64,000 nucleotides of DNA from Dechloromonas sp. (lineage in GTDB: Bacteria > Pseudomonadota > Gammaproteobacteria > Burkholderiales > Rhodocyclaceae), in the NCBI GenBank assembly GCA_028687035.1, contig JAQUAX010000005.1, positions 62,001-126,000 of the forward strand, written 5' to 3'. Below are positions 34,527 to 63,361 of this stretch, piece after piece (position 1 is the stretch's first letter; every line of letters begins with the position of its first letter). A program made the position numbers and the translations under genes. A model generated the notes under the pieces. The model made no database searches, had not been told where the DNA came from, and saw only the letters and a list, made by a program, of their open reading frames with translations.

Positions 34527-35447
34527 GTGCAGATAATCTTGGTTTCGAGCCGTCTGAGGACGGCGAGGACGGTGACCATTATGCCTCGGCATCTGGCGGT
34601 CGGGCTGGCCGCGCTGGTCGCCGTCGTATTCTCGGCGGCGCTGCTGCTGTCCTGGCTTTCCGTCCATTGGCGCCTGCCGCTGGTCGAGGACCTGATGCGC
34701 ACGCTGCATCGCGAGGAGGTCCGGAAGAACCAGGACTACGTCAGCAACAACCTGCAGCTGATGGCGAACCGGCTCGGCGAATTGCAGGCCCGCGTGCTGC
34801 AGCTCGATTCGCTCGGCGAGCGGATGTCCGGGCTGCTCGGCCTGCCGCGCGAAAAGGCGCCGGATGCGCCGCCGGCCGGGCAGGGCGGTCCCTTCCTGCC
34901 GGCCGGCCTGAACGCCGAGCTGCTGCAAGGGGAAATCGAGCGTCTCGAGCAGCACATCGAACGCCGGGCCGACGACCTTGCCCGGCTGGAAGCGCACCTG
35001 CTCGAGAAGCGGGTCGCCGATCGCCTGTTGCCGACCGCGCTGCCGGTCCGCGAGGCGACGCTCAGTTCCGGTTTCGGCTACCGCAACGATCCCTTCGCCG
35101 GCTACCGCTCGCGGCACGAAGGCATCGACTTCGTCGCCGAAGCCGGTACGCCGGTCGTTGCCGCGGCCGACGGCGTCGTGCTCAGTGCGATGGCGCATCC
35201 CCAGTTCGGGAACCTGGTCGAGATCGACCACGGCGACGGGCTGCTGACCCGCTACGCCCATCTGCAGCGGATCGATGTCCCGCCGGGAAGGCTGCTGAAG
35301 CGGGGCGAAAGGCTCGGCGCGGTCGGTTCGACCGGCCGTTCGACCGGGGCGCACCTGCATTTCGAGGTCCGGATGCTCGGCGTCGCGCAGAATCCGGTCC
35401 GCTTCCTGAAGCGCGACCAGGCGTTCGCGCAGATGCTCGGTCGCTGA
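34527..35447 (+). CDS. M23-family peptidase (LytM domain), membrane anchored
   Basis: SGFGYRNDPFAGYRSRHEGIDFVAEAGTPV...GRSTGAHLHFEVR. Confidence 0.93.
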   Translation: MQIILVSSRLRTARTVTIMPRHLAVGLAALVAVVFSAALLLSWLSVHWRLPLVEDLMRTLHREEVRKNQDYVSNNLQLMANRLGELQARVLQLDSLGERMSGLLGLPREKAPDAPPAGQGGPFLPAGLNAELLQGEIERLEQHIERRADDLARLEAHLLEKRVADRLLPTALPVREATLSSGFGYRNDPFAGYRSRHEGIDFVAEAGTPVVAAADGVVLSAMAHPQFGNLVEIDHGDGLLTRYAHLQRIDVPPGRLLKRGERLGAVGSTGRSTGAHLHFEVRMLGVAQNPVRFLKRDQAFAQMLGR

Positions 35448-61789: not shown

Positions 61790-62377
61790 CTAGCGGAAGC
61801 CCGGCAGCCAGCCGGTACGGGCGGGACTGCGGACGGGTTCGATGCGCCCCTGGAACAGCGCCTCGATGACCGGTGGCTCCTGCCACGGTTCGTCCATGAA
61901 GCGCAGGCCGGCCTCCTCGACGGTGCGGCCCGACCAGTAATGGTCGGCGACCTCGTCGAGCGCGGCCAGCGACAGGCTGTGCGGCAGGCGCAGGTAGTCC
62001 AGCCAGCTGGCGTCGTGGAAGGAGCACAGATAGGCGTCCTGCGTCCGGGCGCAGGTCAGGTCCTTGCCGAACACGCGTTGCGGGTGCTTGTGGCGGAAGG
62101 TCATCGCGTCGGTGCGCGTGGCGAACAGCAGCAGCGCGTGCAGGCGGCTCGGGAAATGGTTGTAGCGGCGCTGGCGGAAATACTCGAGGTGGTATTCGGC
62201 GAAGTAGTTCTGCACCGAGAGCAGCTGGTCGCCGGCCCCCGGCTCGCCGCCCTGCGGCGCCGCCAGCGTCGCGCCGAAGGGGCTGCCCTTCAGGATGTCC
62301 CAGCCCGGCAGCTCGCAGTCCGGCTCCAGCCAGCAGAAGAGTTCCAGCGTAGCGGTGTCCTTGATCAGGTTGTCCAT
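61790..62377 (-). CDS. Uncharacterised 195-aa protein, first gene of the exporter operon
   Basis: Intact ORF 11 nt upstream of the adaptor; RRYNHFPSRLHALLLFATRTDAMTF loosely resembles the DUF2441/ADP-ribosyltransferase-like pattern; family not certain. Confidence 0.75.
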   Translation of the reverse strand: MDNLIKDTATLELFCWLEPDCELPGWDILKGSPFGATLAAPQGGEPGAGDQLLSVQNYFAEYHLEYFRQRRYNHFPSRLHALLLFATRTDAMTFRHKHPQRVFGKDLTCARTQDAYLCSFHDASWLDYLRLPHSLSLAALDEVADHYWSGRTVEEAGLRFMDEPWQEPPVIEALFQGRIEPVRSPARTGWLPGFR

Positions 62378-62470
62378 GGGCCGACGGGAAGGGCGAATGC
62401 CATCATTCTCGCCGATCGGGCCGTCGCCGGCCACTCCGCTTTCAGGTGACGGGGGGGTGGCATTTTTTTT

Positions 62471-62692
62471 ACGGAGTGGTAATCTGGAGTCGTGGCGGAG
62501 CGAGCAGCAAGCCCGCCGCGAAGTGGCAGTACCGCTGCGTAGCAGGAGACTCTATGGCAGGTCATTCAGGAAGGTGTTCTTGAGATTACCGTGTAGTACT
62601 CCATGACGGCGAAATGCCGTATGCCTCGGCCGAGAGCCGGGGTCGCAGTAAACGAAGCCCATGCCTGAAACGCATGGGCTTCACGCTTTTGG
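62471..62692 (+). ncRNA. Candidate structured RNA (cis-regulatory or small RNA) upstream of the RidA-family gene
   Basis: Long-range stem 62473-62485 with 62583-62590/62598-62602, internal hairpins, hairpins at 62606-62620 and about 62624-62642, terminator-like hairpin 62654-62682 then TTTT. Confidence 0.5.
62654..62690 (+). terminator. Terminator-like hairpin GAAGCCCATGC-ctgaaac-GCATGGGCTTC-acgc-TTTT
   Basis: 11-bp perfect stem; short T-tract offset by 4 nt. Confidence 0.6.
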
Positions 62693-62703: not shown

Positions 62704-63054
62704 ATGCAGATCCAGCGTCACGGCACGTCCCGCCGCTATTCCGACAGCGTCGTCTACAACGGCACCGTCCATCTGGTCGAAGTGCCGTCCAACCCGGGCG
62801 CCGCGATCGCCGAGCAGACGGCGGACCTGCTCGCCGCGGTCGAGCGCCTGCTGGCGCAGGCCGGCAGCGACAAGGGGCGGCTGCTGATGGTTACCGTCTA
62901 CCTGGCCGACATGGCCGACTACGACGGCATGAACGCGGTCTGGGACGCCTGGCTGCCGGAAGGGGCTGCGCCGGTACGCTGCTGTGTCGAGGCGCGTCTG
63001 GCCAACCCGGGCTGGCGCGTCGAGATGGCCGTCACCGCGGCCGTTCGGGGCTGA
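62704..63054 (+). CDS. RidA (YjgF/YER057c/UK114)-family protein
   Basis: AAIAEQTADLLAAVERLLAQAGSDKGRLLMVTVYLADMADYDGMNAVWDAWLPEGAAPVRCCVEARLANPGWRVEM. Confidence 0.93.
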   Translation: MQIQRHGTSRRYSDSVVYNGTVHLVEVPSNPGAAIAEQTADLLAAVERLLAQAGSDKGRLLMVTVYLADMADYDGMNAVWDAWLPEGAAPVRCCVEARLANPGWRVEMAVTAAVRG

Positions 63055-63361
63055 TTTCGGCGGCGCAGTCGCAGCCGCTGCCGGCCGAGATCCAGCGGGC
63101 CAGCAGCCGGCGGGCGGCGCTTTCGGCGACGCGCGGCAGCGCGCCGACGTAATGCGCCGGGCGCAGCAGCAGCCCGCAGCGGTAGCGGCTTTCCGCGGCC
63201 GACCATTCGAGCGCCGGGCAGGGGCCGGCGATGCGCAGGAAGCGCAGCCGCGCCACCGGGCAGGTTTCCAGCGCGCAGCAGACGCCGCAGCCGTTGCAGG
63301 TACCGCCTTCGGCCGGCTTGGCCGGCGCCGCGCGGTGCAGGTGGATGACCTCGCGGTGCAC
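63032..63361 (-). CDS. YkgJ-type cysteine-cluster protein
   Basis: GGTCNGCGVCCALETCPVARL Cys cluster; C-terminal overlap with the RidA-family gene. Confidence 0.75.
   Translation of the reverse strand: MHREVIHLHRAAPAKPAEGGTCNGCGVCCALETCPVARLRFLRIAGPCPALEWSAAESRYRCGLLLRPAHYVGALPRVAESAARRLLARWISAGSGCDCAAEISPERPR

What the first reader, a model, noticed from the sequence alone, without database searches (positions are those of the whole stretch)
62471..62692. Candidate undescribed structured RNA upstream of a RidA-family gene
This roughly 220-nt non-coding stretch can fold into an ordered architecture. GGAGT-GGTAATCT (62473-62485) pairs with AGATTACC (62583-62590) and, across a 7-nt bulge, ACTCC (62598-62602). 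Inside are GAGTC/GACTC (62487-62491/62548-62552), GGCGG/CCGCC (62494-62498/62513-62517), GCAG/CTGC, and TCAGGAA-ggtg-TTCTTGA. These are followed by ACGGC-gaaat-GCCGT, CCTCGGC-cgaga-GCCGGGG and a terminator-like hairpin just before the ridA-like ATG. I could not match it to a riboswitch class or housekeeping RNA I know. Its position suggests a riboswitch or attenuator for RidA, or an independent sRNA.
Basis: partly seen in the sequence, partly recalled or inferred. Interest (0 to 1): 0.82.

Follow-up and report, generated by a model that had tools for sequence, protein, structure and literature searches.

The report
Undescribed Rhodocyclaceae small RNA with mini-ORF
This stretch is a real, previously uncatalogued small-RNA gene with its own promoter, a folded body and a terminator, found across one family of water and sludge bacteria; it contains a tiny, probably translated reading frame and is not tied to the RidA gene next to it.

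Summary
The finding is real, but it needs redrawing. Window 62490-62690 matches no Rfam family. It belongs to a conserved family: I collected 115 distinct copies, all from Rhodocyclaceae (Azonexus/Dechloromonas, Azospira, Propionivibrio, Accumulibacter, Thauera, Rhodocyclus). There are two subfamilies, A (this copy) and B (a second copy lies elsewhere in the same genome). Comparative pairing supports instead a 5' hairpin, a pseudoknot from its loop to just before a Shine-Dalgarno (98% of cells paired, with compensatory changes), a weaker SD:anti-SD helix, two hairpins and a terminator. The RNA carries a mini-ORF of about 9-13 codons. Its stop triplet drifts TAG to TAA only where it is in frame, and is lost mainly where it is out of frame (p about 0.001). 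The amino acids are hardly conserved, apart from a PPQ motif in B. ridA follows only 33 of 68 A copies and no B copy; the RNA persists where ridA is missing. I read it as an independent sRNA gene whose translated mini-ORF is part of how it works, not as a RidA riboswitch. Its targets are unknown.

The parts
62457..62462 (+). -35-like element GTGGCA (family consensus cTGGcT in A, TGGAC in B)
   Evidence: 17 bases before the -10 in 99 of 115 copies; the search regex fixed the spacing and some positions
62480..62485 (+). -10 element TAATCT preceded by TGG (family: TAAGCT, TATATT, TAATCT)
62490..62690 (+). the small RNA, inferred start at 62489-62492, inferred end after TTTT at 62690
   Evidence: promoter distance and terminator; homologues; no Rfam match
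62491..62520 (+). hairpin P1 (62491-62498 with 62513-62520)
   Evidence: 7 of 8 pairs show changes on both sides
62504..62538 (+). pseudoknot PK: P1 loop GCAGC 62504-62508 with GCTGC 62534-62538
   Evidence: 98% of cells paired; one pair A-U to G-C in 16 of 49 sequences; GTAGC:GCTAC and CGGT:ACCG variants
62545..62602 (+). Shine-Dalgarno GGAG 62545-62548 pairing with CTCC 62599-62602 (P2)
   Evidence: 81% of cells paired, one pair compensatory in 6 sequences; weaker support than the other helices
62554..62583 (+). mini-ORF ATG...TGA, MAGHSGRCS (13 codons ending in UAG/UAA in many relatives)
   Evidence: start and stop constraint in homologues
62606..62620 (+). hairpin P3 ACGGC-GAAAT-GCCGT
   Evidence: core CGGC/GCCG nearly invariant
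62624..62642 (+). hairpin P4 CCTCGGC-CGAGA-GCCGGGG
   Evidence: all 6 counted pairs show changes on both sides, 96% of cells paired
62654..62690 (+). terminator hairpin P5 GAAGCCCATGC/GCATGGGCTTC followed by ACGCTTTT
   Evidence: 99.8% of cells paired; B copies with CAAGC/GCTTG variants
62704..63054 (+). neighbouring RidA-family gene, not part of the RNA
   Evidence: Pfam PF01042 82.4 bits; absent behind half of the A copies and all B copies

Best explanation
62490-62690 is a free-standing small-RNA gene of an undescribed Rhodocyclaceae family, about 200 nt, with its own sigma-70-type promoter and an intrinsic terminator. The RNA folds into a 5' hairpin whose loop makes a pseudoknot with the segment just before a Shine-Dalgarno; the SD can also pair with CUCC behind the mini-ORF. 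A ribosome starts on the SD, translates a mini-ORF and stops shortly before the 3' hairpins. In subfamily A (this copy) what is preserved is that translation starts and ends there, not the peptide. The proposed mechanism is a translation-coupled sRNA: the pseudoknot and the SD:anti-SD helix set how often the mini-ORF is translated, and ribosome passage decides whether the CUCC segment and the conserved 3' half are exposed to act on other RNAs or proteins. Shown by comparison: gene family, promoter, fold, start and stop constraint, independence of ridA. Inferred: trans-action, the switch, the targets. In Azonexus some read-through may also feed ridA.
For: No Rfam match in window or homologues. 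Homologues in 33 of 37 genomes of the genus and 21 of 200 family genomes in 11 genera; strong matches only inside the family among 400 order genomes. 39-pair structure: 91.7% of cells paired against 34-44% for slid versions, 22 pairs with changes on both sides, covariation above all 500 shuffles. Promoter at fixed spacing. A start codon (ATG, GTG or TTG) behind the SD in 112 of 115 copies. Stop triplet: 17 TAA among 79 in-frame copies and 0 among 36 out-of-frame copies; non-stop changes in 6 of 36 out-of-frame copies (Fisher p 0.0012; about 13 TAA events on a tree). Most length changes are multiples of three (36, 39, 42; 37, 40, 49). ridA behind 33 of 68 A and 0 of 47 B copies.
Against: No expression data. 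The mini-ORF shows no excess of synonymous change overall, so its translation rests on start and stop patterns. 36 of 115 copies have the AUG-to-GUAG distance out of frame, most of them (distance 40) ending in an earlier UGA. L101, L210, L216 and L218 do not fit the rule. The SD:anti-SD helix is only moderately supported. No target or partner was tested. The terminator U-run is short.
Confidence: 0.68

Rival explanations
1. Cis-acting leader: a transcription attenuator or riboswitch that controls the gene behind the terminator, ridA in Azonexus and a membrane sensor-like gene in some Accumulibacter and Propionivibrio, through translation of the mini-ORF as a leader peptide.
For: ridA starts about 15-21 nt after the end of the core match whenever present; SD, mini-ORF and terminator resemble a leader-peptide attenuator; in L068, L095, L111 and L205 a long same-strand ORF starts 60-114 nt downstream.
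Against: 35 of 68 A and all 47 B copies lack a ridA match behind them (a few of these have short downstream sequence); in L012, L020, L027 and L150 an opposite-strand gene follows directly; in Propionivibrio limicola the next gene is an opposite-strand miaA-type gene. No terminator/antiterminator alternative is conserved; P5 is paired in 99.8% of cells.
Confidence: 0.17
2. Purely non-coding trans-acting sRNA: SD-like GGAG and AUG are structural or target-pairing motifs and translation is incidental.
For: No synonymous excess; frame differs between two A groups; nucleotides GAGAUUACCGNGUAG stay conserved even when out of frame.
Against: TAG/TAA interchange confined to in-frame copies, non-stop changes concentrated in out-of-frame copies; GTG and TTG as alternative starts; most indels multiples of three; in B, variation in the PPQ codons is synonymous except in one ORF.
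Confidence: 0.12
3. Not a separate RNA: the ATG at 62614 opens a 30-residue N-terminal extension of RidA and the hairpins are incidental.
For: The frame from 62614 is open into ridA in the window.
Against: Covarying hairpins and pseudoknot, non-triplet length differences in that stretch between species, and copies without ridA.
Confidence: 0.02

Closest known systems
Dual-function sRNAs (SgrS/SgrT, Spot 42/SpfP, Vibrio VcdRP)
   Same: Terminated, independently transcribed small RNA that also carries a ribosome binding site and a small ORF (VcdRP with a 29-aa protein: PMC8672173; the others from general knowledge).
   Different: Here the ORF is only about 9-13 codons and in subfamily A its amino acids are not conserved; a pseudoknot lies directly before the SD; no base-pairing target is known; no sequence match in Rfam.
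Leader-peptide attenuators whose terminated RNA acts in trans (rhizobial trpL / rnTrpL, from general knowledge)
   Same: Short leader-like ORF, following hairpins, intrinsic terminator, sometimes a gene right behind.
   Different: No run of regulatory codons in A, the downstream gene is not conserved, and the element persists with no same-strand gene behind it.
6S RNA (RF00013)
   Same: Structured non-coding RNA of about 200 nt in Proteobacteria.
   Different: The host has an ordinary 6S gene elsewhere (55 bits), and this RNA does not match that model.

Membership tests
Any Rfam 15 family | covariance-model score at or above the family's gathering score | tested here: not met
   0 matches in the window; only a chance 12.6-bit match to BcKCsr2 (gathering score 40) with permissive settings; none over the RNA in 8 homologous loci
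6S RNA | match to RF00013 | tested here: not met
   the genome's 6S match is at another place, G000:C1:180660-180840
RidA riboswitch or attenuator | consistent position before the regulated gene | tested here: not met
   ridA behind 33 of 68 A and 0 of 47 B copies
RidA riboswitch or attenuator | ligand- or translation-dependent change of termination | not testable with these tools
   needs in-line probing or reporter assays
Dual-function sRNA | own promoter and terminator | tested here: met
   conserved -35/-10 spacing and terminator across copies in different neighbourhoods; transcription itself not measured
Dual-function sRNA | translated small ORF | tested here: inconclusive
   start and stop constraint favours translation; no synonymous excess
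Dual-function sRNA | base-pairs with target mRNAs | not tested
   no target prediction or experiment was run
Leader-peptide attenuator | mutually exclusive terminator and antiterminator | tested here: inconclusive
   only the terminator form is seen as conserved pairing; no systematic search for alternative folds

The most novel reading that the evidence does not exclude
A free-standing attenuator without a gene: an independent sRNA whose activity is set by whether a ribosome translates and terminates on its mini-ORF, gated by a pseudoknot next to the SD, with subfamily B using a conserved Pro-Pro-Gln stretch as a ribosome-slowing sensor (for example of prolyl-tRNA or EF-P status). It would report translational state in trans.
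Probability: 0.15. Interest if true: 0.82.

Novelty: new variant of a known kind. Interest (0 to 1): 0.62.

Why it matters
It adds a well-supported, multi-copy RNA family to a bacterial group important in wastewater phosphorus removal and perchlorate reduction (Accumulibacter, Dechloromonas/Azonexus, general knowledge). Its combination of pseudoknot, SD sequestration and a mini-ORF whose frame and stop are kept while its peptide drifts makes it a testable case for sRNAs controlled by translation itself. It also frees RidA from a suggested riboswitch.

Tried and rejected
(1) Known Rfam family, including permissive search: no. (2) Divergent 6S RNA: the host has a normal 6S elsewhere. (4) Homologues outside the family: Pseudomonas, Ottowia, Xanthomonas and other hits of the pattern scan, and the weak R1 hits in other families that I inspected, are look-alike terminators. 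(5) Conserved peptide by synonymous excess: not found overall in A or B. (6) prfB-like +1 frameshift at TTCTTGAG to rejoin the 13-codon frame: the downstream UAG is lost more often in out-of-frame copies, so not favoured. (7) Plasmid homologues: none. (8) Literature for a Rhodocyclaceae, Dechloromonas or Accumulibacter sRNA of this kind: none found in the searched open library. (9) CsrA sponge by GGA count: only about two conserved GGA motifs by eye; not pursued.

Full report
What is there. No Rfam family matches it, even permissively, and none matches the RNA in eight homologous loci. The genome's 6S RNA lies elsewhere.

Homologues. A nucleotide search found the element in 30 genomes of the genus and none in 24 genomes of other families. 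A pattern scan of named genomes added Azospira, Rhodocyclus, Propionivibrio, Accumulibacter and Thauera; Pseudomonas and other hits in that scan are unrelated terminators. That pattern required the P3 and terminator sequences, so it is biased towards copies that keep them. A covariance model of the 3' two thirds found copies in 33 of 37 genomes of the genus and in 21 of 200 family genomes from 11 of 68 genera. Among 400 order genomes all strong matches are in the family; weaker ones that I inspected are look-alike terminators. In all I collected 115 distinct copies, 68 of subfamily A and 47 of subfamily B. The host genome has one of each: this one, and a B copy at G000:C11:1395-1538.

Anatomy. 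Upstream lies a conserved promoter: a cTGGcT (A) or TGGAC (B) element, 17 bases, then TANNNT (the regex used fixes the spacing and some positions, so those are not independent evidence). In the window the -10 is TAATCT at 62480-62485. Across 49 A sequences its two halves pair in 59% and 69% of cells, and one pair is broken in 39 of 49 sequences. The structure I propose pairs in 91.7% of cells, against 34-44% when slid, and exceeds all 500 shuffles in every measure. Its strongest new element is the pseudoknot between the P1 loop (GCAGC) and GCUGC just before the SD: 98% paired, with GCGGC:GCCGC, GUAGC:GCUAC and CGGU:ACCG variants. P1 and P4 covary throughout; the terminator is paired in 99.8% of cells. 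The SD:anti-SD helix P2 is weaker (81%, one compensatory pair).

The mini-ORF. A GGAG-type SD stands at a fixed distance from a start codon (112 of 115 ATG, GTG or TTG). The frame is 13 codons in most B and about 28 A copies and 9 codons in about 32 A copies, this one included. The AUG-to-stop-triplet distance is 36, 39 or 42 (in frame) or 37, 40 or 49 (class +1, most with an earlier in-frame UGA), with a single exception of 38 (L210). In the in-frame class the triplet is TAG or TAA in 74 of 79 copies, with 17 TAA; in the out-of-frame class TAA never occurs and the triplet is lost in 6 of 36 (Fisher p 0.0012). On a tree this is about 13 TAA events and 9 non-stop events, so it is not one inherited change. 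This favours translation. Against it, there is no synonymous excess over the ORF (fraction 0.21 against 0.22-0.26 in the other frames for B). In B the PPQ codons vary only synonymously, except in the Rhodocyclus copy. So start, stop and frame seem constrained more than the peptide.

Neighbours. The downstream gene is a RidA-family protein (PF01042, 82.4 bits). It follows 33 of 68 A copies, nearly always at the same distance, and no B copy. In L012, L020, L027 and L150 the same flanking genes are present, ridA is missing, and the RNA with its terminator is intact. Other A copies sit before a sensor-like gene or converge on a miaA-type gene; some B copies lie behind a Bax1-I gene. A RidA riboswitch is therefore unlikely; incidental read-through into ridA in Azonexus is possible.

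How it may work. I propose an independent sRNA whose exposure is coupled to translation of its mini-ORF, with the pseudoknot and the SD:anti-SD helix as gates. The gene, promoter, fold and start/stop constraint are shown by comparison; the gating and the trans-action are inferred; the targets are unknown. The nearest known systems are dual-function sRNAs such as VcdRP (PMC8672173) and, from general knowledge, attenuator RNAs that act in trans. No earlier description was found in the open library, which does not cover subscription journals.

Noticed in passing
61790-62434 (-): A 214-aa ORF, divergent from the RNA gene and about 80% identical in many relatives, with no Pfam family; the fixed upstream neighbour of many A copies next to a HlyD-type efflux gene.
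   Followed up: partly
63032-63361 (-): A 109-aa cysteine-rich ORF (CNGCGVCC motif) conserved with the locus, no Pfam match.
   Followed up: no
L225, L226 (G030:C3): Three B-type copies within about 40 kb of one genome; in G009 two B copies lie 16 bases from contig starts (L042, L227), which suggests repeated surroundings.
   Followed up: partly
L068, L095, L111, L205: In Accumulibacter/Propionivibrio-type genomes A copies lie 60-114 nt before a membrane sensor-like gene on the same strand (no Pfam match in the first 300 residues of the one scanned).
   Followed up: partly
35126-35230 (+): ARAGORN calls a 105-nt tRNA-Arg with anticodon gcg, unusually long; possibly a false positive.
   Followed up: no
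62654-62682 and B copies: The terminator stem sequence AAGCCCAUGC/GCAUGGGCUU is far more conserved than termination alone needs; B copies with CAAGC/GCTTG show it can change in a compensated way.
   Followed up: partly
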